64,000 bases of DNA, from positions 7,542,501-7,606,500 of the forward strand of contig NZ_CP094516.1 in NCBI RefSeq assembly GCF_029909975.1. Direction: 5' to 3'. The translations under genes and the position numbers were made by a program. The notes under the pieces were generated by a model. It saw only the letters and a program-made list of their open reading frames with translations. It made no database searches and was not told the DNA's origin. Below are positions 2,421 through 22,850 of this stretch, in pieces; position 1 is the first letter of the stretch, and each line of letters starts with the position of its first letter. This DNA is from Bradyrhizobium sp. ISRA430. GTDB taxonomy: Bacteria; Pseudomonadota; Alphaproteobacteria; Rhizobiales; Xanthobacteraceae.

Positions 2421-2736
2421 GCGTCACCTGGCGGGCCATGCAATCGCGAACCGTCGGTTGTTCAACATCTAACAAGCGTGATGCCTATCCGTCGATCAAG
2501 CTTGGACTAATGAGCGGCAATGCTCATTGAACGTCAACCGGTCCGCCCCCCGCTGGTGATTAGCGGCGGTAATCTGTCGCAAGCTGTCCTGGCCTCGGTC
2601 ACCTGACGTGCCCTGCGGAACAGCGCTGTCGCAGTCCCGACTATGTTAGCATTCGTACGTCGGGAAGCGGGCTAGAGGGGCACATTACCCGGTCTATGCC
2701 TCTGTGATGGCAAGCCGATTCCAAAATGGCGGGCGA
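2421..2736. other. Upstream region of fixA
   Basis: No gene is visible. The stretch precedes the sigma-54 promoter at 2737. Two imperfect NifA-like sites of form TGT-N10-ACG (2644-2659) and TGT-N10-ACT (2627-2642) lie 80-110 bases upstream of the promoter. Neither matches the TGT-N10-ACA consensus exactly. Confidence 0.4.
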
Positions 2737-2752
2737 TGGTACAACACTTGCT
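2737..2752 (+). promoter_or_regulatory. Sigma-54 (-24/-12) promoter of fixA
   Basis: TGGTACAACACTTGCT matches the RpoN consensus TGGCAC-N5-TTGCW. It has the invariant GG and GC separated by exactly 10 bases. It lies 38 bases upstream of the GTG start of fixA. NifA/RpoN control of fixA is established in Bradyrhizobium. Confidence 0.85.
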
Positions 2753-2790
2753 GTGCTCTTCGCAGCTGTCGCAGCTTTTGGAGCAACACC

Positions 2791-3633
2791 GTGCACAATG
2801 TCGTCTGCATCAAACAGGTTCCGGACTCGGCGCAGATCCGCGTGCACCCGGTGACCAATACAATCATGCGTCAGGGAGTGCCGACCATCATCAACCCATA
2901 TGACCTCTTCGCGCTCGAGGCCGCGCTGGAGCTGCGCGATCGGTTCGGCGGCGAAATTACCGTGCTTACAATGGGACCGCCATCGGCGGAAGATTCTTTG
3001 CGAAAGGCGCTGACTTATGGCGCCGATCGCGCCGTCCTACTCACCGATCGCTGCTTTGCGGGCTCCGACACCCTGGCCACAACGTATGCACTTGCAACAG
3101 CCATCCGAAAAATTGGTAAGGAATATGGCCCGACAAACCTCATTTTCACGGGAAAGCAGACGATCGACGGCGATACGGCGCAGGTTGGGCCCGGTATCGC
3201 AAAGCGGCTGGGCGTACTGCAGCTAACCTACGTTGCGAAAGTCAGATCCTTAGATCTCGCTGCCCATACAATTGAAGCGGAACGACGCTCCGAAGGTGGT
3301 GTCCAGGTGCTGCACACGAAGCTGCCCTGTCTCATCACCATGCTGGAGGCAACGAATCAGATTCGGCGCGGCGCGATGGCGGATGCCTTGCGTGCCGCGC
3401 GTGCCCAAATCGTGAAATGGAGCGCAAACGATGCCGGTATCGAAGACGTCTCCAAATGCGGCCTCAAGGGATCGCCGACCGTCGTCAAGCGAGTGTTCGC
3501 GCCCTCTGCGCGGGCTGAGAAGGCGGCGCTGGTCGAGGCCGCCGAGCAACCGGCGCAGGCGTTGATAGACGCTATTTTCAAGCATCAACCGAAGCTCGAA
3601 GCCGATCTTGCTGCACTTGTCCGTGACGCTTGA
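2791..3633 (+). CDS. fixA: FixA, electron-transfer flavoprotein beta subunit
   Basis: FixA is the beta subunit of the FixAB electron-transfer flavoprotein. With FixC and FixX it sends electrons to nitrogenase in diazotrophs. The 280-residue product begins HNVVCIKQVPDSAQIRVHP and keeps the family pattern throughout: an NPYDLFALEAAL segment, the adenine-nucleotide loop LIFTGKQTIDGDTAQVGP near residue 125, and LPCLITMLEATNQIRRGA. The GTG at 2791 is chosen because GGAG lies 7 bases before it and because homology starts there; the upstream in-frame ATG at 2704 would place the promoter inside the gene. No fixB, fixC or fixX follows, which agrees with B. japonicum, where fixA is unlinked to fixBCX. 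Confidence 0.93.
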   Translation: MHNVVCIKQVPDSAQIRVHPVTNTIMRQGVPTIINPYDLFALEAALELRDRFGGEITVLTMGPPSAEDSLRKALTYGADRAVLLTDRCFAGSDTLATTYALATAIRKIGKEYGPTNLIFTGKQTIDGDTAQVGPGIAKRLGVLQLTYVAKVRSLDLAAHTIEAERRSEGGVQVLHTKLPCLITMLEATNQIRRGAMADALRAARAQIVKWSANDAGIEDVSKCGLKGSPTVVKRVFAPSARAEKAALVEAAEQPAQALIDAIFKHQPKLEADLAALVRDA

Positions 3634-4707
3634 TCTGGACAGACCTGATCGAAAACGGTCCAAGGATGTACCAACACCATGAGGCACCCGCGTCCAGTGA
3701 GCGCGCAAGATGTAGCTAGGCATCTCAGTCCGCGAACTGCGCATTCTGGTCCATGGCGTTCTTCGATTGCTCGCGATCAGCGGGGACTACATGTTCCGTA
3801 GACCGCGTTATGGCCTCGATCGATGCCCGGAGTTGGCCGCGATTGTCAGGCGCATCGACAAAGGGCTGCGCATGCGTCCAGATCCCACTATATGGTCGTG
3901 TTCGACGGCCTGAGGCGGCTGCTTCGCGTAGTTGTCACGAGCGAAGACGGATTACGTCAGCGACCGGGACCACCATGCTAGCGCCCGAACGCCCAAAGCG
4001 CTGTCGCGCTGTTAAGCGCGCGAAGCCCACCTATGTGGCACCTTTGGACCACCCTCGCGATTCAACAGCCCTATACCCGTTGTGAGTGGCGGCTGGCTCT
4101 TCGCCGTCTGGTTTCTGACGGCCGTGCAAGCGCTGTCAGGTTCAATACAATTGCAATGAGGAGTCGGTCGCGAGCGTTTTGTCAATGTATTCAGAATCTG
4201 TGGTGTGAGTGCACGAGTTGGCACGGTGATTGCTGTAGACGTGCAAGAAGACAGCGTGGTGGCGCGTCGCGGACGCGAAACCTAGCGGCGGTCTCTTTGA
4301 GAAGTTGGTGCCGGCCAGCAGCCCGTATTTCGCGCAGCTTGCGGCCGAAGGCCCCGAGAGCCAGGTAGATGCGGATAGTCCTTGCAATGCTGTACGAAGC
4401 TCATAGCGGTCCATCAACTGGCAGGAGCAGCAACCGCGAGGGCCTGTGCGGCGTAATATCTCACCATGACTCTGCAAGCGAATGCTGGCCGTGCCGGGAA
4501 TTCGCGGCATCGAAACTTTTCGTGGACCGGAATCCGTCTGGATCGCCGCCGCTCAGTTGATCTACGCGTTCCCTTCGATGCGCGTGAGCAGGACTGAGCA
4601 TGCCGCTGTCTGCTACCGCGAAGGCGGCCACCAAGAATGTCGCCTGGATGGTGAACGCGAACACAAGCTCATCGAAACCAACGAACTCGCGGTAGCCAAC
4701 AGTTGGC
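3634..4707. other. Long gap after fixA, decayed DNA
   Basis: About 1.07 kb with no intact gene. Both strands carry short open frames whose translations are Arg-, Ser- and Cys-rich and look like out-of-frame reading. The segment 3735-3900 on the plus strand reads as a protein-like frame without a start codon, but I cannot name it. Confidence 0.4.
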
Positions 4708-4724
4708 CCGGATACGAAGTTGCT
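4708..4724 (+). promoter_or_regulatory. Possible sigma-54 promoter of the 4763 operon
   Basis: CCGGATACGAAGTTGCT has the GG-N10-GC spacing and a perfect TTGCT -12 element. The -24 element (CCGGATACG) is weaker than TTGGCACG. It ends 38 bases before the ATG at 4763. No TGT-N10-ACA NifA site was found upstream, so the assignment is tentative. Confidence 0.4.
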
Positions 4725-4762
4725 CCGTCAAGGACCGTTCTCTCCTCATCGCCAGGGGTCAA

Positions 4763-5968
4763 ATGACATCTCAAGCGTCTCGATTTACACCCGATCAGCC
4801 TCCGCAGATATGCTGCGAGTATTTGACTGAGCAAGCGCGAGCCCTGTTCGGCCCGCACCCGTTCGCTGCGGAGATGTCCGAGGACCAGGTCGCTAGCCTG
4901 CTGCCTGAATATCTGGCGATGTCACAGGCGTTCCCGTACCTGCAGGCGGGGTCGCAAAGGGATCTCATATTCGATGCAATGAATCACAATCGAGATCTTG
5001 CGAGGGACATTGAACTGACCAGCGTGGTCGCAAACTTCATCTGTTGGGATGAGACAGGTGGTTATGGCCAAATTCTCCAGGGCGGCAAGGCGGCGCTACC
5101 CGATATTCTGGTGACTGAGAACTTCCACTCCAACCTGTTTAGAAGGGATGCGTCGAAGCTACTCGGCAGAGCAATACGGCCCAACTACAGCGCCACGACG
5201 AAGCGGTACCTGCATTCTCTCTATGCCGGATTGTCATCGAAAGATCCCTTAGTGCGTTGCGCCTACATGGTCGCTTTTGAGCTACATGCTGCGGACATGA
5301 TCCAGTCGCTATGGACCACTCTGGTCAAAACCTTTAAGGCGCGGCCTGACGATCTTGAGTACTTCCGCAGCCATGTCGGCGGAGAAGATCCCGCGGAGAA
5401 GTATCACGGAGAAATGACAAGCCGGCTGATTGGCGAACTTGTCCCGGCTGACCGTAATCATCGCTTTTTGGATGAATTCGATCGAGCCTATCGGCTCAGC
5501 TTACAGTGGTGCCGCGATCTGCTCCGAATTGTCTCACTTGAGGGAGATGATCACTCGGAGATCGAACACCATGGCCGTTGTCACTGTGGTTCTGTCAAGT
5601 TCTACGTCCGAGCGCCGCGAGAGCTCTCTGCAGTTCGATGCAATTGCTCAATCTGCCAAATGTCTGGATTTCTGCACTTGCTCGTACCTGGCGATAAGCT
5701 CGGAATTGAGTGTGGCGAAGAATTCCTCACGGCGTATCAGTTCAACAAGAACATCGCTCGGCACACGTTTTGCCGGGTTTGTGGCGTAAAGCCATTCTAT
5801 AGGCCGCGGTCGAACCCCTCCGGATTCAGCGTAAATATTCGATGCCTGGATAACAGAACCATCGAACGCATAAGAATAAGCGAGTTCGATGGCGAGCATT
5901 GGGACCAAGCATTCCGCTCGATGCACCAGGACCTTCAGTCCTGCGTCGAAGATAAAACCCTGGAGTGA
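4763..5968 (+). CDS. Heme-oxygenase-like (HDO-type) domain fused to GFA zinc domain
   Basis: A 401-residue two-domain protein. Residues 1 to about 270 are all-helical and resemble the iron-containing heme-oxygenase-like fold. Acid and histidine residues sit where diiron enzymes of this fold carry ligands, for example the AYMVAFELHAADMIQS helix and YFRSHVGGEDPAEKYHGEM. Residues from about 275 onwards form a GFA/CENP-V domain with its zinc ligands: CHCGSVKFYVR, CNCSICQ, and FCRVCGVKPFYRPRS. GFA domains bind zinc and include glutathione-dependent formaldehyde-activating proteins. The ATG at 4763 is preferred over the one at 4703 because AGGGG lies just upstream. The next gene starts 6 bases after the stop, so the two form an operon. 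The reaction is unknown; a role in making a small molecule is inferred. Confidence 0.7.
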   Translation: MTSQASRFTPDQPPQICCEYLTEQARALFGPHPFAAEMSEDQVASLLPEYLAMSQAFPYLQAGSQRDLIFDAMNHNRDLARDIELTSVVANFICWDETGGYGQILQGGKAALPDILVTENFHSNLFRRDASKLLGRAIRPNYSATTKRYLHSLYAGLSSKDPLVRCAYMVAFELHAADMIQSLWTTLVKTFKARPDDLEYFRSHVGGEDPAEKYHGEMTSRLIGELVPADRNHRFLDEFDRAYRLSLQWCRDLLRIVSLEGDDHSEIEHHGRCHCGSVKFYVRAPRELSAVRCNCSICQMSGFLHLLVPGDKLGIECGEEFLTAYQFNKNIARHTFCRVCGVKPFYRPRSNPSGFSVNIRCLDNRTIERIRISEFDGEHWDQAFRSMHQDLQSCVEDKTLE

Positions 5969-5974
5969 ACTCGA

Positions 5975-6652
5975 ATGGCGCGCGCAATGAATCATAAATC
6001 CCGTTTGCTTTCAGAAGAAGCTTTGACAAAATACCGCATAGAGCTGTTGGTGAAGGGGACGGTCGTGATCGGCCCCCAGATATTGTTCACCCAAGATGAC
6101 TTGGCCAAGATCGATCAGCTGCAGGGTGAGATTCCCGAAGAAGAAGTGAGGGAGGGAGATGCCGGCGACTCGCACAATGTTTTTGTCAGACGCGTGAGGG
6201 TAGACCCGCCCGGCCACGCTCCTAGCGACGCCAGTGGTGCAGCTCCAGGGCAGATCATGGAACTACTTGAAAGGAAAGACCGCAGCTTCGCGCTAAAAAA
6301 GATTTTGGGAGCCACGTCAGATTACGTGATTCGCCGATGCCAGATGCATCGGATGCCTCCTGGTTCCTTTGTTGGCATTCATCTGGATGCTGCGAGCGAC
6401 CCGGATTTCGAGTACGCGGTGATTGTGCAGCTGGCGAGGGACTTCGAGGGGGGTGAGTTCGTAGTATATCCAAGTGTGTACGAACACCAGGTATTCCGAC
6501 CGCCATTTGGCGCCGTGCTTGTCACCACATGTAAGCTCCGGCATGAGGTGAAGCCTGTGCTGTCCGGCGAGCGCCGATCGCTGGTCTACTTCTGTTCAAA
6601 ACGCAGCGGCGCGAACCGCCGGATCGTCGAAAGCTCTACCGCTGGGCTATGA
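5975..6652 (+). CDS. 2-oxoglutarate/Fe(II)-dependent oxygenase
   Basis: A 225-residue protein (221 if the second ATG at 5987 is used) with the jelly-roll signature of 2OG-Fe(II) oxygenases. It has an iron-binding His-x-Asp in GIHLDAASD, the strand FEGGEFVVYPS, the distal iron ligand His in KLRHEVKPV, and the 2-oxoglutarate-binding Arg in GERRSLVYF. The N-terminal 95 residues are less typical and may form a substrate-binding extension. These enzymes hydroxylate, desaturate or cyclise a substrate while decarboxylating 2-oxoglutarate. The start lies 6 bases after the HDO-GFA fusion gene, with a TGGAGTGA site, so co-translation is likely. Substrate unknown. Confidence 0.8.
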   Translation: MARAMNHKSRLLSEEALTKYRIELLVKGTVVIGPQILFTQDDLAKIDQLQGEIPEEEVREGDAGDSHNVFVRRVRVDPPGHAPSDASGAAPGQIMELLERKDRSFALKKILGATSDYVIRRCQMHRMPPGSFVGIHLDAASDPDFEYAVIVQLARDFEGGEFVVYPSVYEHQVFRPPFGAVLVTTCKLRHEVKPVLSGERRSLVYFCSKRSGANRRIVESSTAGL

Positions 6653-7459: not shown

Positions 7460-8773
7460 TCAAACCATTCTCAGGAGCCGGTCCTGCAGATCGCGGGCCG
7501 CGGGCCGATCGCGCGCAATCACAAGGCACTCCACCGTGCCGGCCTCTTCGTCGGCGGCAAGCGGGATCACGCCCTCCTTGCGTGTGCGGTCGAACAGAAA
7601 TCCTTCCTTGACGAAACGATCATGCGCTGTTTGGAGGGATCGTGATCGAACATTTCTAGCGGATAAAATAACGTTGCAACCGGAATAGTCGAAGCCCAGC
7701 AGCCGGACGGCAATGCTGTGTAACACCGAGCCGCCACCCCAGCGGCCGTTCGCTTCATTAAACAGCAACCGTCCGTCATCCGTGAAAATGGCGTCAATGT
7801 TGATCATTCCGCGATATCCCAGGTTTCGCGCAAGCGCCACAAATCGGTAGGCATGCGCCTGAGCAGTCAACCACTGCTCGTTCCCCAGGTCGCTTGGAAG
7901 CTCAAGTCCTGTCCAGATCAGAGCTCTTTCGGATCGATCCGTGCTTTTACGCAGACGTATGTTTCCACTGTTCATGAAAACGATTGAACCATCCTCGATT
8001 TCATACTCGAGATAGAACAAAGACTTGGCCAGGTGGTACGACTCCACGACCAGCGTCTTACACGATGCCGTTGTCATCTCAGACCAAAGCGCGTCAGGAT
8101 CAAACGACGGCCATGGAATTCGCCGGGTATCTCTTGCCCCAGGTAGTGGATCGCTTTCATTGCCGGTCAGGATGACATTTCCGACTCCACCGGCTCCATT
8201 GTCCAGCTTTACAATGACGCTGCCGGTCTCGGTTCTGAGGGAAGTGACCGCTCTGAATAGTTCGTTTGAGTCCGTCGTGACGGATCCATTGGGCAGCGGA
8301 AGTGCGACGCTTGTCGCCAATTGACGGAAGTGGCTCTTGCGGTTCAACAGATCAGGCCCTCGCTGCAGAGCGAAGTCGTCGCCGGTCTGCGGTATGCCCA
8401 GCATGGCCGCCAGGCGTGCGACGCCTTCGGTAGAGTAGCAGGGATACAATCGCCAGGTTGATTTCTGACGAATATGTCGGTTGATTCGCTCAACAATAGT
8501 CTTGGACAGAAGTGTGCAATCATCAAGGATCGGCGATTGGCGGCCGCCTTCGGGTACAAGCAGACAAAGACTCGATGCGTCGAAATCGAGGGTCGCACCA
8601 ATGAAGGATAGCAGATCCGCCGGGATGACTACCGGGGAGACTATCAGGTCACCCTCATGAGCAAACCACGCTGAACGGTATGCCGAGTTGGCGGCCAGCG
8701 AAAGTTGAGCTGGTGTCAGATCGGCGCCCGACATTTGAGCCGTACCGGCATTCATGATCAGGATCCGCGGCAT
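7460..8773 (-). CDS. ATP-grasp ligase, PGM1-like
   Basis: A 437-residue soluble protein with ATP-grasp features. VIVKLDNGAGGVGN (about residues 187-200) is the ATP-binding lysine and glycine loop. FLYLEYEIEDGSIVFMN follows, and FNEANGRWGGGSVLH near residue 340 carries the magnesium-binding Glu and Asn. The N-terminal half (FALQRGPDLLNRKSHFRQLA) resembles peptide-ligase-like ATP-grasp proteins of the PGM1 group, which join an amino acid or peptide to a carboxylate. The ATG at 8773 follows GGAGGT at 5 bases. On the same strand upstream lies a dead adenylate-forming enzyme fragment (8940-9141). This suggests a former natural-product gene set. Substrate unknown; the exact subfamily is uncertain. 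Confidence 0.72.
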   Translation of the reverse strand: MPRILIMNAGTAQMSGADLTPAQLSLAANSAYRSAWFAHEGDLIVSPVVIPADLLSFIGATLDFDASSLCLLVPEGGRQSPILDDCTLLSKTIVERINRHIRQKSTWRLYPCYSTEGVARLAAMLGIPQTGDDFALQRGPDLLNRKSHFRQLATSVALPLPNGSVTTDSNELFRAVTSLRTETGSVIVKLDNGAGGVGNVILTGNESDPLPGARDTRRIPWPSFDPDALWSEMTTASCKTLVVESYHLAKSLFYLEYEIEDGSIVFMNSGNIRLRKSTDRSERALIWTGLELPSDLGNEQWLTAQAHAYRFVALARNLGYRGMINIDAIFTDDGRLLFNEANGRWGGGSVLHSIAVRLLGFDYSGCNVILSARNVRSRSLQTAHDRFVKEGFLFDRTRKEGVIPLAADEEAGTVECLVIARDRPAARDLQDRLLRMV

Positions 8774-10536: not shown

Positions 10537-11661
10537 TTATCGCAGCGTCTGATAGAGGCGGTACAGCAGCCGCGCGCGAGGTTCAATCGACGAGATGTAG
10601 AGTTGCTCATAATGCGTATGCGCGCCCTTGCCGTCGACGCCAAGGCCGTCAAGGGTCGCGGTATGCGGCGCGGTGAAATTGCTATCGGAGCCGCCGCCGC
10701 TGAACGCGTCGAGCAGCTCGAAGCCAAGCTCGGCGGCCAGCTCTTTGGCGTGTGCGTAAAGCGCAGCACCGGCGCTGGTCTTCTCATATGGCGGACGGTT
10801 CAATTCGCCTGATACCTTCACGCTGACGCCCTCGGTGCGCGAGCTGATGCCGAGAATCTTCGGCACCAGCTCGTCGGCATGGGCCATGGTCGGGACGCGC
10901 ATGTCGACTTGCGCATAGGCCAGTTCCGCGACGACGTTGGGCCTGGTGCCGCCGCGGACGACGCCGACATTGACGGTGATACCGCGCGTGAGATCGTTCA
11001 TCGCTTCCAGCGTCTGGATCACATGGCCGAGTTCCCGGATTGCGCTGCGGCCGTCCTCGGGGCCCGTGCCGGCATGCGCGGGCGCGCCCTTGATGAATAC
11101 GTCGAAGCGCGCAACGCCCTTGCGCCCCGTGATGACCTTGCCGCCGTCGCGCGCCGGCTCGGTCACCAGCACGTATTTGGCCTTGCGGCCCTCGGCCTCG
11201 ATCAGCGCGCGCGAGGTTGGGCTGCCGATCTCTTCGTCCGAGACGTAGAGGTGGGTAATGCCGAGCGGCGGGCGTGCGTCATCGGCGCAGATTTGCCGGA
11301 ATGCGTGATAGGCGAGGTAGGCACCGCCCTTCATGTCGTAGATGCCGGGGCCGAACGCATTGTTGCCGTCGATCTTGAATGGTAGCCGTTCGATAGATCC
11401 CATCGGATGAACGGTGTCGAGATGGCTTAACACCAGAATGCCCGGTACGCCCTGCCCCCAAGAAGAGCGGGTGACCAAATGATCGCCGCAGCCGTCACGC
11501 CCCGCAACGCGCTCGACGCTGGCCGGCAGGTCGCGATAGCCTGCTGCGACGACATCAGCCAGTTTGTTGATCTGATCCGGCCGCTCCGTCGGAGATTCGA
11601 TCAGGACCCAGCGGCGAATGCCCTTGAGAATCGGGGCGATTTCGAACGCGTTGCTGGACAT
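10537..11661 (-). CDS. M20 family metallopeptidase (glutamate carboxypeptidase type)
   Basis: A 374-residue zinc peptidase of the M20 family, closest in pattern to carboxypeptidase G2. Metal ligands are visible in order: His in LSHLDTVHPMG, Asp in GIYDMKGGAYLA, the catalytic Glu pair in YVSDEEIGSP, Glu in LVTEPARDGG, and His in DGKGAHTHYEQLY. Length and order are normal, so the enzyme should be active. Such enzymes remove C-terminal glutamate or other amino acids from peptides, folates or amino-acid conjugates in the cytoplasm. The ATG at 11661 is chosen because homology begins there; an upstream in-frame ATG at 11721 adds 20 unlikely residues. It stands alone on the minus strand. Confidence 0.85.
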   Translation of the reverse strand: MSSNAFEIAPILKGIRRWVLIESPTERPDQINKLADVVAAGYRDLPASVERVAGRDGCGDHLVTRSSWGQGVPGILVLSHLDTVHPMGSIERLPFKIDGNNAFGPGIYDMKGGAYLAYHAFRQICADDARPPLGITHLYVSDEEIGSPTSRALIEAEGRKAKYVLVTEPARDGGKVITGRKGVARFDVFIKGAPAHAGTGPEDGRSAIRELGHVIQTLEAMNDLTRGITVNVGVVRGGTRPNVVAELAYAQVDMRVPTMAHADELVPKILGISSRTEGVSVKVSGELNRPPYEKTSAGAALYAHAKELAAELGFELLDAFSGGGSDSNFTAPHTATLDGLGVDGKGAHTHYEQLYISSIEPRARLLYRLYQTLR

Positions 11662-12202
11662 GGTTGTCTGACGCCTTTGAATTCGATTGTCATCGCTTCT
11701 GCAAGATGATGACATCACCATCTACTCACATCAGAATCGAGCCCGAAGATCTAGAGAGGCGCCATCCGTTGTGACCCCGGGGCGTGCCTCTGGACCAGAT
11801 CCTGCTGCGGCAACGATGCTACGCGCCTGTCGATCACAACTGAGCTACCAAAGCTGGTAGTTTTCGACGAGATTATGCAGCCGAGGCCGTACTGGAGTTG
11901 GACGTTCTGGTGAGCTGTAATTGTTCTGATCAGGACCTTCCTGCGATTTCGGCAAAAAACGCATTGTCCTGACCAGGTAACCCGCACGCGTCTCGACGCG
12001 GGAGGTCGCAGGCCGGCGCCAGCATAGCAGGACAGGCGAAGCGCCGAAATCGCCGGAGCTGATGAGGCCTTTCAATACGAGCTCTAATCTGTGAAACCAG
12101 TCGCAGCCCGGGCGATTGTTCGATGACCGTCGCTGGAAGCGACCAGCGATTGAGGCCATCCACCGTTCTGCTCTCCCGACGGCATCTGCGCAAAAACCGC
12201 AC
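11662..12202. other. Gap between M20 peptidase and flavin reductase remnant
   Basis: About 540 bases. Minus-strand open frames continue in the direction of the flavin reductase remnant, but their translations are not recognisable. They could be remains of a gene once co-transcribed with it. Confidence 0.35.
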
Positions 12203-12727
12203 TCAGTCAAGCAGTAAGGTTCGAAGCGCGCCCCGGAAGTTGATCAACGGATTTCCATGGCTTTCTCGGGTCGCGATAATTCGTCCGATCAAGATGGTAT
12301 GTGTGCCAAAGCACCTTGTGGTCATACAAAACGCATTCGAGCGCGCAAAATGCGTCCGGCAATAGCGGTACATTGAGGACGCCCTGATTCCAGGGCGCGG
12401 TATCGAAGCGGTGAACGCCTTTCGCCCCCTCCCGACCGCCAAAACGCAGGGCAAGGTCCTCCTGGTCACTGCGGAGAACACTGACTCCAAAGCTGCCGTT
12501 GGCAAGGATCTCATTATGTACCTCGGAGCGGGCTTGATGCCAACGAACAGGCACGGCGGCTCCAAGCAGAGTGACGTCACAGAACTCACCGTCAGTCCAC
12601 GTCGTCCGGCTGCCGTCCCGGTCGTCACGATGGCGACACCGCTCGCCAGGCTTCGCATGGCATGGCGGAACTCTGCCGGTTGGATAGACGGCACATCCCG
12701 AATCGCAGGAGAGAACCGGTGGCTCAT
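12203..12727 (-). pseudogene. Flavin reductase (HpaC/NTAB-like) with two compensating frameshifts
   Basis: The gene begins MSHRFSPAIRDVPSIQPAEF and reads FRHAMRSLASGVAIVTTG, then CLEPPCLFVGIKPA, the start of the flavin reductase-like domain that makes FMNH2 or FADH2 for partner monooxygenases. Near 12530 one base is lost and the family sequence goes on in another frame: SEVHNEILANGSFGVSVLRS, then FGGREGAKGVHRFDTAPW and LPDAFCALECVLYDHKVL. Near 12308 a second shift restores the first frame, which ends GTHTILIGRIIATRES. Total length (174 codons) is normal for the family. The middle third of any product would be wrong, so the gene is probably dead. A candidate partner monooxygenase is at 40265. 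Confidence 0.75.
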
Positions 12728-16240: not shown

Positions 16241-17433
16241 GCTAGTCACGCGAATCTAAAGTTCGCCAAATAATGTCTGCTGAGCTTTGTGACAGAAGCG
16301 TTTGACCGAAGCCAAAATCTGGTCTGCGGACTTGGTCCATTTGAAGGGCTTCGGGTTTCTGTTGTGCAGGTCGATGAAGGTACGGATGTCGGCCTCGAGC
16401 TGCCTGACGGAGGTGTGGACACCTCGCTGGATCTGCTTTCTGGTCAGTTCAGCGAACCAGCGCTCGACCTGATTGATCCATGACGTGGACGTCGGCGTAA
16501 AATGAACATGATAGTGAGGCCGACGTGCGAGCCACGCTTTGATCTTGGGTGTCTTGTGGGTGGCGTAGTTATCCATGACGATATGGACATCGAGCCCTTC
16601 AGGAACTTGGGCATCGATCTCTTTTAAAAACTTCAAGAACTCGACCGCTCGGTGGCGCTTGTAGCATTTGCCGATAACGAACCCCGAGGCGACATCGAGC
16701 GCAGCAAACAGCGAGGTCGTACCATGCCGCACATAGCTGTGCGTGCGACGTTCCGGCACCCCAGGCATCATCGGCAAGACCGGCTGCTCGCGATCGAGTG
16801 CCTGGATCTGGCTTTTCTCATCGATGCTGAGGACGAGGGCTCGGTTCGGTGGAGACAGGTAAAGGCCGACGATATCGCGCACCTTGTCGACGAACAGCGG
16901 ATCGCTCGACAGCTTGAACGTCTGGCTGCGGTGCGGCTGCAAGCCGAACGCCGCCCACATACGGCGGATCGTGGTGTGGGAAAAGCCAGTTTCCGCAGCC
17001 ATCGAGCAGATCGACCAGTGCGTCGCATCGGCCGGCGTCATACGCAACGTCCGCTCGATCACGGCAGCGACCTGATCGTCGTCGATGGTGCGAGGGCGGC
17101 CAGGGCGGGCCTCGTCAAGCAGGCCATCACAGCGGTCCTTCAAGAATCGGCGGCGCCACTTGCCAACGGTATGTTCGTGGAGGCCGAGTTCGGCAGCTAC
17201 AGACTTGCTTGGCAAGCCATCCGCACATCGCAGGATCGCGCGGCATCGCTCAGATAGCGACCGGGCAACACGATGACGACGAACTTGCCTCTCCAAGTAC
17301 GCCCGCTCCTGCGGACTCAGCACTAACGGCGCGATCGGCCGGCCTCGCTCACCTGCATTCGCCACTCGCACTCTCCTCTGTAGAGATTCGAGCTATCAAC
17401 TAATGTGACGAACTTGCGTTCCAGATGACTAGC
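16241..17433 (-). mobile_element. IS630-family insertion sequence, complete
   Basis: The ends form an inverted repeat of about 27 bases: GCTAGTCA, ten variable bases, AAGTTCG at the left, and the same blocks inverted at the right (TGACTAGC at 17426-17433). TA dinucleotides at 16243-16244 and 17430-17431 are the target duplication typical of IS630, giving an element of about 1185 bases between them. One intact transposase gene fills it. It sits inside the biotin carboxylase pseudogene. Confidence 0.85.
16256..17371 (-). CDS. IS630-family transposase
   Basis: A 371-residue transposase, intact. The N-terminal third carries helix-turn-helix segments that bind the ends (SLSERCRAILRCADGLPSKS; LGLHEHTVGKWRRRFLKDRC). 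The catalytic DDE core is visible: Asp in LVLSIDEKSQIQAL, Asp in HIVMDNYATHKTPKIKAWL, and Glu in STSWINQVERWFAELTRK. The single frame without programmed shift, the TA target site and the terminal repeats all agree with IS630. The element may still be mobile. Confidence 0.93.
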   Translation of the reverse strand: MRVANAGERGRPIAPLVLSPQERAYLERQVRRHRVARSLSERCRAILRCADGLPSKSVAAELGLHEHTVGKWRRRFLKDRCDGLLDEARPGRPRTIDDDQVAAVIERTLRMTPADATHWSICSMAAETGFSHTTIRRMWAAFGLQPHRSQTFKLSSDPLFVDKVRDIVGLYLSPPNRALVLSIDEKSQIQALDREQPVLPMMPGVPERRTHSYVRHGTTSLFAALDVASGFVIGKCYKRHRAVEFLKFLKEIDAQVPEGLDVHIVMDNYATHKTPKIKAWLARRPHYHVHFTPTSTSWINQVERWFAELTRKQIQRGVHTSVRQLEADIRTFIDLHNRNPKPFKWTKSADQILASVKRFCHKAQQTLFGEL

Positions 17434-22016: not shown

Positions 22017-22850
22017 ATGTATAATCGAGTTAGTGGCCGATCCACACGCCCTAATCAAGCTGACGAACCGAGTCGGTCCGCGGACAGTTACGAATTTGCT
22101 CAAACATTGACGGATCTCGCTCAACGGGAGAGCCCGCCATCTGGGGAATTGTCCGACAAAATGGGGCTCTGCTGCAGCAAGCCACAGACCTCAGATGCAA
22201 TCATTTATAGTCCAAGCACCTCGGAGCCCAGCACATCCTCTCTGTCCACCAGCTCAAATCCAACCTCTCCAGCGAGGCCTATCCGTCCTTTGTTCGAATA
22301 CAGGACTGCTGAATTGTCCGAGGCCAATGTCAACGGAATCTGCGTTGGATTGGCAGCGGAGTGGCTCCTCAATCTCCCGAGCAGCCCATCATCCCGGATG
22401 AGGGCGCTGCGCCCGGGGACTCAAAATCACAGCTCAGCGGCCATGCGGCAGCAGCGGTATGAAGACCTCAAGAGCCTGTTGCGAAGGAATAGGGCGGAAG
22501 GTTCTCACAACCTTCAGGCAAAAAGTACGATGTTACGCGAAGCCGGCCTAGAGCCGTTCGCCCAAGAGACGCGATATAGGTTTGGTACATCTTCGCGCAT
22601 TGACCAGATCGTGAATGAGGTCGCCGACAATGGGTCGATCTACTTGGTCAGCTTGCGTTTCGCCGCAGGTGGCGCCCACACAATCGCAACGTCGACATCG
22701 AATGGAATGACGACCCTCTTTGATCCTAATTATGGGGAATTTACTGTTCGCTCAGATCAGATGGGTGAGTTGTTCAAAAGTCTCGCCGACCGCTACAGGA
22801 ACCCGAACCGACATGATATATCGGCCGTCGTCACACAAAGGATGACGTGA
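22017..22850 (+). CDS. nopT: NopT, type III effector cysteine protease (YopT/AvrPphB family C58)
   Basis: A 277-residue effector that is injected into host cells and cleaves host proteins. The catalytic triad is complete: Cys109 in NVNGICVGLAAEWL, His221 in AAGGAHTIATS, Asp236 in TTLFDPNYGEF. Residues 46-55 (LSDKMGLCCS) contain the autocleavage site between Met49 and Gly50. Cleavage exposes Gly-Leu-Cys-Cys, which host enzymes would myristoylate on glycine and palmitoylate on the cysteines for membrane anchoring, as reported for NopT of strain NGR234. A Ser/Thr/Pro-rich linker follows (65-95). The length is normal and the frame intact. A tts-box-like site lies upstream, so TtsI, and through it flavonoids and NodD, probably controls it. 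Confidence 0.93.
   Translation: MYNRVSGRSTRPNQADEPSRSADSYEFAQTLTDLAQRESPPSGELSDKMGLCCSKPQTSDAIIYSPSTSEPSTSSLSTSSNPTSPARPIRPLFEYRTAELSEANVNGICVGLAAEWLLNLPSSPSSRMRALRPGTQNHSSAAMRQQRYEDLKSLLRRNRAEGSHNLQAKSTMLREAGLEPFAQETRYRFGTSSRIDQIVNEVADNGSIYLVSLRFAAGGAHTIATSTSNGMTTLFDPNYGEFTVRSDQMGELFKSLADRYRNPNRHDISAVVTQRMT

What the first reader, a model, noticed from the sequence alone, without database searches (positions are those of the whole stretch)
4763..6652. Two-gene oxidase unit: HDO-like plus GFA fusion with a 2OG/Fe(II) oxygenase
The sequence shows one protein joining a heme-oxygenase-like helical domain with diiron-type acid/His residues to a complete GFA zinc domain. A 2-oxoglutarate/Fe(II) oxygenase starts 6 bases later. 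Heme-oxygenase-like diiron oxidases and 2OG oxygenases are both common in small-molecule tailoring, and GFA domains handle thiol-formaldehyde adducts. A system in which one enzyme releases a C1 unit and the GFA domain captures it is a plausible idea, but it is inference.
Basis: partly seen in the sequence, partly recalled or inferred. Interest (0 to 1): 0.72.

Follow-up and report, generated by a model that had tools for sequence, protein, structure and literature searches.

The report
Nodule-specific fused oxidase plus oxygenase pair
Many root-nodule bacteria carry, beside a nitrogen-fixation gene, a fused protein (an oxidase joined to a zinc domain of a formaldehyde-related family) paired with a second iron oxygenase, which probably helps make an unknown small peptide-like compound in nodules.

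Summary
ORF 4763-5968 is one 401-aa protein: an HDO-fold helical domain (AlphaFold mean pLDDT 90; PDB neighbours CADD-like, BesC, PolF) fused to a GFA zinc domain; a 2OG/Fe(II) oxygenase follows 6 bases later. The fusion is in one open frame, followed by the 2OG gene, in 48 of 49 Bradyrhizobium loci scored; unnamed database proteins extend it beyond the genus, one joining part of the HDO, GFA and 2OG. Among 60 congeners it occurs in 21 of 33 nodA+ and 0 of 27 nodA- genomes. A NifA-type site and a sigma-54 promoter lie upstream, and a published table lists USDA 110 blr2041/blr2042 as 18- to 28-fold down in nifA-mutant nodules (blr2041 identified by adjacency). Relatives of the domains co-cluster with PGM1-type ATP-grasp peptide ligases in Legionella, an Oligoflexia MAG, Rhizobium leguminosarum, Rhodococcus and Kocuria; such a ligase lies beside the pair here too. 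Best reading: tailoring enzymes of an unknown NifA-controlled, ligase-made peptide or amino-acid metabolite. That the HDO releases formaldehyde for the GFA domain is attractive (BesC precedent) but unproven. Known enzyme kinds in a new, symbiosis-linked combination.

The parts
4134..4149 (+). NifA-type upstream activator sequence TGT-N10-ACA
   Evidence: Pattern scan; the pattern alone is weak, it occurs at 12 places in the 64 kb. A UAS lies 60-140 bp upstream of the sigma-54 site in 23 of 49 loci
4219..4233 (+). sigma-54 (-24/-12) promoter TGGCACGGTGATTGC, 544 bp before the ATG
   Evidence: site present at -700 to -400 in 31 of 49 loci, against 0.0003 per 300-bp slot in mononucleotide shuffles
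4763..5548 (+). HDO-fold domain, residues 1-262; candidate metal ligands E97, H122, E173, H204, E212, H215
   Evidence: AlphaFold model and structure matches; residues conserved in 70 of 70 aligned homologues (H215 69 of 70)
5567..5857 (+). GFA domain (Pfam residues 269-365) of the same protein, seven zinc-type cysteines
   Evidence: Pfam above cut-off; cysteines in 48 of 48 Bradyrhizobium copies, window included (C340 47 of 48)
5975..6652 (+). 2OG/Fe(II) oxygenase, 225 aa, motif H136-x-D138 ... H190 ... R200
   Evidence: Pfam above cut-off; PDB 6n1f E 1.9e-55; these residues invariant in 23 of 23 aligned
7460..8773 (-). PGM1-type ATP-grasp peptide ligase, 437 aa, convergent neighbour; probable but unproven pathway partner
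   Evidence: PF18604 and PF18105 above cut-off; a relative found in 39 of 51 loci, 4 lack it with more than 9 kb held downstream, 8 too short to tell
10537..11721 (-). M20-family peptidase, possible but unproven associate
   Evidence: Pfam; present in part of the Bradyrhizobium loci
2704..3633 (+). fixA-type gene (ETF beta), the usual upstream neighbour
   Evidence: Pfam/NCBIfam; found upstream in 35 of 49 loci, at 0.3 to 9.3 kb; several of the rest are cut short

Best explanation
The two genes encode oxidative tailoring enzymes of a small peptide or amino-acid natural product that nodulating Bradyrhizobium make inside root nodules under NifA/sigma-54 control. The HDO domain, probably diiron, would oxidise an amino-acid-type substrate; the fused GFA domain would bind a thiol (glutathione) and take up an aldehyde, most simply formaldehyde, that the HDO reaction releases; the adjacent 2OG oxygenase would hydroxylate substrate or product; and the convergent PGM1-type ATP-grasp enzyme would join amino acids. 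Shown here: predicted fold, fusion, pairing, conservation, promoter elements, restriction to nodA+ strains in the sample, co-clustering of relatives. Shown by others: nifA-dependent transcript levels listed for blr2041/blr2042. Inferred: every reaction, and the ligase's part in the pathway.
For: HDO fold and conserved acid/His set. Of 50 Bradyrhizobium loci, 50 carry GFA followed by the 2OG gene and 48 also the HDO part; P0069 carries part of the HDO, GFA and 2OG in one protein. 21 of 33 nodA+ against 0 of 27 nodA- congeners. Sigma-54 site in 31 of 49 loci, with a UAS in 23. PMC4926349 Table 3 passages: blr2041 -4.2, blr2042 -4.8, fixA blr2038 -4.6 log2 in nifA-mutant nodules. HDOs beside ATP-grasp ligases are a recognised set, at least 25 BGC types (PMC13185094).
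Against: In Bradyrhizobium the ligase is on the opposite strand, and none of 39 ligase upstream regions carries a sigma-54-like site, so co-expression is unproven; 4 of 51 loci lack it. No relative of the Legionella or R. leguminosarum PF10014 oxygenase, desaturase or (Legionella) Cys/Met PLP enzyme was found in the held Bradyrhizobium stretches. The window's GFA domain is also 45-60% identical to GFAs of other bacteria whose neighbours show no such cluster, so GFA similarity by itself does not mark a pathway. 12 of 33 nodA+ strains lack the full fusion, so it is not needed for nodulation. The sigma-54 site was not seen in the 18 loci whose HDO part is under 78% identical. A few copies are broken (G019 and L056 in the HDO part; L029 in the 2OG). 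No substrate or product is known, and O2 is scarce in nodules.
Confidence: 0.55

Rival explanations
1. BesC-like formaldehyde release and capture in one protein: the HDO domain cleaves a C-C bond of a lysine- or ornithine-type amino acid or residue, releasing formaldehyde (and perhaps ammonia), and the tethered GFA domain holds it as a glutathione adduct. This is the specific form of the best explanation.
Confidence: 0.25
2. GFA as a thiol-adduct or glutathione carrier: the substrate is presented to the HDO as a thiol adduct, so the GFA domain takes part in biosynthesis rather than in detoxification.
For: GFA of Paracoccus binds glutathione and may act as a carrier (PMC4682968). GFA also sits in ligase clusters in which no HDO was found (R. 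leguminosarum, Rhodococcus, Kocuria), so its role need not depend on the HDO.
Against: No direct evidence for any thiol-bound intermediate.
Confidence: 0.2
3. Stress or redox protection of bacteroids: the proteins handle formaldehyde or haem/iron in the nodule and make no product.
For: nifA-dependent expression together with fixA; the GFA family name; standalone GFAs similar to this domain occur in scattered contexts.
Against: Does not explain pairing with a 2OG oxygenase, or the peptide ligases, desaturase and PLP genes beside relatives elsewhere; full fusion absent from 12 of 33 nodA+ strains.
Confidence: 0.1
4. The ligase link is accidental in Bradyrhizobium: the pair acts alone on a free metabolite and the PGM1-type gene merely lies beside it on the symbiosis island.
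For: Opposite strand; none of 39 ligase upstream regions has a sigma-54-like site; 4 of 51 loci lack it.
Against: The window ligase's best plasmid relative (41%) is the one beside GFA and 2OG in R. leguminosarum; the three highest-scoring of 21 plasmid hits to the ligase are the same plasmids as the three highest-scoring GFA hits among the 40 listed of 186.
Confidence: 0.25

Closest known systems
Heme-oxygenase-like diiron oxidases/oxygenases (BesC, PolF, CADD, HrmI, MboA)
   Same: Predicted fold of residues about 12-262; conserved acid/His set alignable to the canonical motif
   Different: No sequence hit to a solved HDO at E up to 1 (single protein) or 10 (profile); apparent extra helix between E97 and H122 and a four-residue insertion in the third motif (H-x7-E-x2-H instead of H-x3-D-x2-H), both inferred; fused to GFA
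GFA / glutathione-dependent formaldehyde-activating family (PF04828; 3fac, 1x6m)
   Different: C-terminal domain of an oxidase. By sequence it is closer to the cluster GFAs (42-49%) than to the other Bradyrhizobium GFAs listed (at most 39%), but some standalone GFAs elsewhere are closer still (up to 60%)
2OG/Fe(II) oxygenase PDB 6n1f
   Same: E 1.9e-55 over residues 14-217
   Different: Function of 6n1f is not stated in the listing; the gene here follows an HDO-GFA gene
HDO + ATP-grasp ligase clusters such as mangotoxin mboABCDEF (PMC13185094)
   Same: HDO near an ATP-grasp ligase
   Different: Mbo has a flavin/Fe2S2 redox partner MboB; GFA and formaldehyde are not mentioned in that paper's main text; the ligase here is PGM1-type. 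Whether this is one of its 25 types cannot be seen (figure and supplement not held)
beta-ethynylserine (bes) pathway
   Same: HDO plus an Fe/2OG enzyme (in the Legionella-type clusters also a Cys/Met PLP enzyme and ligases)
   Different: 2OG motif here is not of the halogenase type (motif recalled); no GFA in bes as far as recalled

Membership tests
HDO superfamily | Heme-oxygenase-like helical bundle | tested here: met
HDO superfamily | 3 His / 3 carboxylate dimetal ligand set on core helices | tested here: inconclusive
HDO superfamily | Dimetal binding and O2 activation | not testable with these tools
   Needs protein
Pfam PF14518 Haem_oxygenas_2 | Score above gathering cut-off | tested here: not met
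   23.4 bits against 28.9
GFA family PF04828 | Score above cut-off and the Cys zinc sites | tested here: met
   46.6 bits against 24.3; 7 Cys in 48 of 48 copies, C340 in 47
GFA family PF04828 | Glutathione binding / formaldehyde adduct chemistry | not testable with these tools
   Catalysis not seen even for the Paracoccus protein, which does bind glutathione
2OG/Fe(II) oxygenase PF13640 | Score above cut-off and HxD...H plus Arg motif | tested here: met
   38.6 bits against 27; H136, D138, H190, R200 in 23 of 23
HDO + ATP-grasp ligase biosynthetic clusters | ATP-grasp ligase near the HDO gene | tested here: met
   39 of 51 Bradyrhizobium loci incl. window; same strand, one gene away, in two Legionella, G512 and Oligoflexia
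HDO + ATP-grasp ligase biosynthetic clusters | Co-transcription or shared promoter type of ligase and HDO | tested here: not met
   Convergent genes in the window; 0 of 39 ligase upstream regions with a sigma-54-like site. Applies to Bradyrhizobium only
bes-type pathway | 2OG halogenase partner (HxG/A motif, recalled) | tested here: not met
   HxD in P0002
NifA/sigma-54 regulon | UAS plus -24/-12 promoter upstream | tested here: met
   met for the window and 22 further loci for both elements, 31 of 49 for the promoter
NifA/sigma-54 regulon | nifA-dependent expression | not tested
   Published for USDA 110 blr2041/blr2042 (PMC4926349 passages); blr2042 is P0142, 83% to P0002, blr2041 taken from adjacency, not from sequence

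The most novel reading that the evidence does not exclude
A nitrogen-fixation-regulated natural-product pathway of nodule bacteroids in which one polypeptide both makes and captures a one-carbon unit: the HDO domain fragments an amino-acid or ligase-made peptide substrate, formaldehyde passes to the tethered GFA domain as a glutathione adduct, and the 2OG oxygenase finishes a product that acts on the plant or on rival bacteria. The recurrent HDO-GFA-2OG-PGM1 ligase set would define a new class of ligase-built metabolites across Bradyrhizobium, Legionella, Rhizobium and actinobacteria.
Probability: 0.2. Interest if true: 0.85.

Novelty: new variant of a known kind. Interest (0 to 1): 0.62.

Why it matters
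It points to an unstudied oxidative pathway, apparently NifA-controlled and expressed in nodules, beside fixA in symbiotic Bradyrhizobium. If confirmed, it would give a symbiotic metabolite with a genetic handle, show how an oxygenase with a toxic one-carbon by-product is paired with its own scavenger, and give the GFA family, whose proposed activity is disputed, a defined biochemical setting.

Tried and rejected
Tried and rejected: (1) A conserved precursor peptide in the roughly 530-bp leader: small ORFs of different loci resemble each other (best query: 23 loci) but, in the seven loci printed, shift frame and end differently, so I see no shared intact one. (2) Viral carriage: one scan of viral contigs gave no relative. 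(3) A common enzyme of Pseudomonadota: a standalone-type HDO query matched 3 of 398 sampled genomes at E 1e-15, all of this genus; the 2OG matched 5 of 398 at E 1e-25, three of this genus. (4) P. phymatum Bphy_7726 as an orthologue: an HDO-type gene plus two ATP-grasp genes lie between nodBC and nifA, but blastp finds no significant relation to the window HDO or ligase, and two of the three are up, not down, in nifA nodules. (5) Another fusion nearby: of the 14 other GFA matches of the genome only L008, about 26 kb upstream of the window, was looked at; it looks like a separate gene. (6) GFA neighbours: 10 of the 13 GFA-only loci were listed and show scattered neighbours, some housekeeping-like (RecR- or DnaX-like by eye). 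(7) PHROGs gave nothing for the fusion; NCBIfam nothing at E 0.1. (8) The circularly permuted ATP-grasp-like gene of the Legionella-type clusters: no match in this genome. (9) Plasmids: the standalone-type HDO P0075 has no match; matches to the fusion listed (40 of 186 records) cover mainly the GFA end, none 80% of the protein.

Fisher's test ignores relatedness of the genomes; four genomes with weak partial NodA matches (G015, G032, G045, G048) were counted as nodA-, and G042, which has only the GFA end, as lacking the fusion. The HDO tree is one FastTree run, midpoint rooted. The dN/dS, promoter and spacing counts come from the same 49 loci, which are closely related.

Paper use: PMC4926349, PMC8305402, PMC10187165, PMC8473136 and PMC4842269: passages only. 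PMC13185094: abstract, section 6 part 1 of 3, Discussion, passages. PMC13108848: abstract and outline, sections 4 and 7. PMC4682968: abstract and Discussion. PMC12123629: searched, no passage found. Other papers were seen only as search listings. Of the 6 papers listed none holds 'GFA'; of the five gene numbers searched only PMC4926349 holds any.

Full report
Where it lies. The window is part of an unnamed 8.56-Mb single-contig genome whose closest named protein and locus matches are Bradyrhizobium. ORF 4763-5968 encodes 401 residues; ORF 5975-6652 encodes 225. They are 6 bases apart. Pfam places GFA at residues 269-365 and a weak, below-cut-off Haem_oxygenas_2 match at 119-245 in the first, and 2OG-FeII_Oxy_3 at 122-206 in the second. 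NCBIfam gives nothing at E 0.1 for the first. The second is close to solved structure 6n1f (E 1.9e-55).

Distribution of the fusion and pair. A scan of GTDB genome contigs gave 66 loci. All 50 from Bradyrhizobium carry GFA followed by the 2OG gene; 48 carry the HDO part too, one of them (L056) broken; L057 and L058 lack it; the 2OG of L029 is in two frames. In 48 of the 49 loci scored (window included) HDO and GFA share one open frame and the 2OG start, placed by alignment to P0002, lies -20 to +35 bases from the stop. In the HDO tree, fusions fall in three places: a main clade of 38, P0064/P0065, and P0067/P0068 beside the Legionella, G512 and Oligoflexia proteins (support 0.90), meaning repeated fusion or repeated loss.

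Link to nodulation and nitrogen fixation. Of 60 congeneric genomes (this one included), 21 have the fusion (G019 in two frames; G042, with only the GFA end, counted as lacking) and 33 have full nodA. All 21 are nodA+; none of the 27 nodA- genomes, four of them with weak partial NodA matches, has it (p 5e-8 without correction for relatedness). None of the 40 genomes from outside the genus in that sample has it. A fixA-type gene lies upstream in 35 of 49 loci. In genome G021 nifA ends 2.5 kb before the fusion, whereas in this genome nifA is about 117 kb away. A TGT-N10-ACA site at 4134 and TGGCACGGTGATTGC at 4219 precede the fusion; the first pattern is common by itself, with 12 places in the window. 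A sigma-54 site is at -700 to -400 in 31 of 49 loci, namely those whose HDO part is at least 81% identical to the window's, with a UAS in 23; the 18 loci under 78% do not show it there. PMC4926349, Table 3, passages read: blr2041 (unknown protein) -4.2 and blr2042 (hypothetical) -4.8 log2 in nifA-mutant versus wild-type soybean nodules, fixA -4.6. blr2042 is P0142, 83% identical to P0002; blr2041 is identified only as its neighbour.

The company these domains keep. In R. leguminosarum WSM1689 a plasmid carries in one run PF10014 dioxygenase, PGM1-related ligase (41%), desaturase, GFA (46%) and PF13640 2OG (31%). Rhodococcus and Kocuria plasmids hold GFA, ligase and PF10014 dioxygenase together. 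The cluster GFAs of these five groups are 55-66% identical to each other across groups and 42-49% to the window's. In G191, whose 2OG is nearly identical to a Stenotrophomonas protein, the 2OG relative (43%) follows an ATP-grasp-like gene related (24-25%) to that of the Legionella-type clusters. P. aromaticivorans holds a PGM1-type ligase with PF10014, an Asp hydroxylase and an HDO of another subfamily. In the window the convergent gene 7460-8773 is a PGM1-type ligase; a relative is present in 39 of 51 loci and absent in 4 with enough sequence. Against this: the window ligase is on the other strand, none of 39 ligase upstream regions has a sigma-54-like site, no desaturase, PLP or PF10014 relative was found near the Bradyrhizobium pair, and standalone GFAs up to 60% identical to the window's occur in scattered contexts.

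Mechanism. Characterised HDOs mostly act on amino or fatty acids, and HDOs near ATP-grasp ligases are a recognised set. I therefore place the pair in an amino-acid or peptide tailoring pathway. The GFA domain suggests an aldehyde or thiol adduct in the HDO step; BesC releases formaldehyde. But GFA of Paracoccus only bound glutathione and did not speed adduct formation, and GFA also occurs in ligase clusters where no HDO was found, so the capture idea stays a hypothesis at about one in four.

Comparison and novelty. Each enzyme kind is known. The HDO-GFA fusion with a 2OG partner, its nodA-restricted and NifA-linked setting, and the recurrent GFA-PGM1 ligase set were not found described in the searches made, in a library that lacks most subscription papers; one search's one hit, on the Pbo cluster of the phaseolotoxin pathway, has a ligase and an Ile-hydroxylase-like 2OG dioxygenase but no HDO term (passages). 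I rate it a new variant of a known kind.

Noticed in passing
L122 (Paraburkholderia phymatum pBPHY02) 3013-6263: An HDO-type gene (PF14518 at its cut-off) and two ATP-grasp genes sit between nodBC and nifA; published data list two of the three as up in nifA nodules. Unrelated in sequence to the window HDO, so HDO plus ligase near nif/nod genes occurs at least twice in rhizobia.
   Followed up: partly
window 22017-22850 +: Peptidase C58 family protein (PF03543, E 5e-53), the family of the rhizobial effector NopT (recalled).
   Followed up: no
window 20018-19888 -: A NifA-type site and a sigma-54-like site facing the minus strand with no minus-strand ORF of 130 aa or more within 2.5 kb downstream; may mark a lost NifA-controlled gene.
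   Followed up: no
window 2459-2474: NifA-type site upstream of fixA.
   Followed up: no
L121 237-4135: Beside the G512 cluster lie genes that look dehydroquinate-synthase-like, TIM-barrel-like and phosphodiesterase-like (by eye only).
   Followed up: no
window 12207-12554 -: Flavin reductase domain piece (PF01613) between the M20 and trpD genes; possibly a decayed gene.
   Followed up: no
window 16256-17371 -: Transposase (DDE_3 and HTH domains), consistent with island rearrangement and with nifA lying about 117 kb from the pair here.
   Followed up: no
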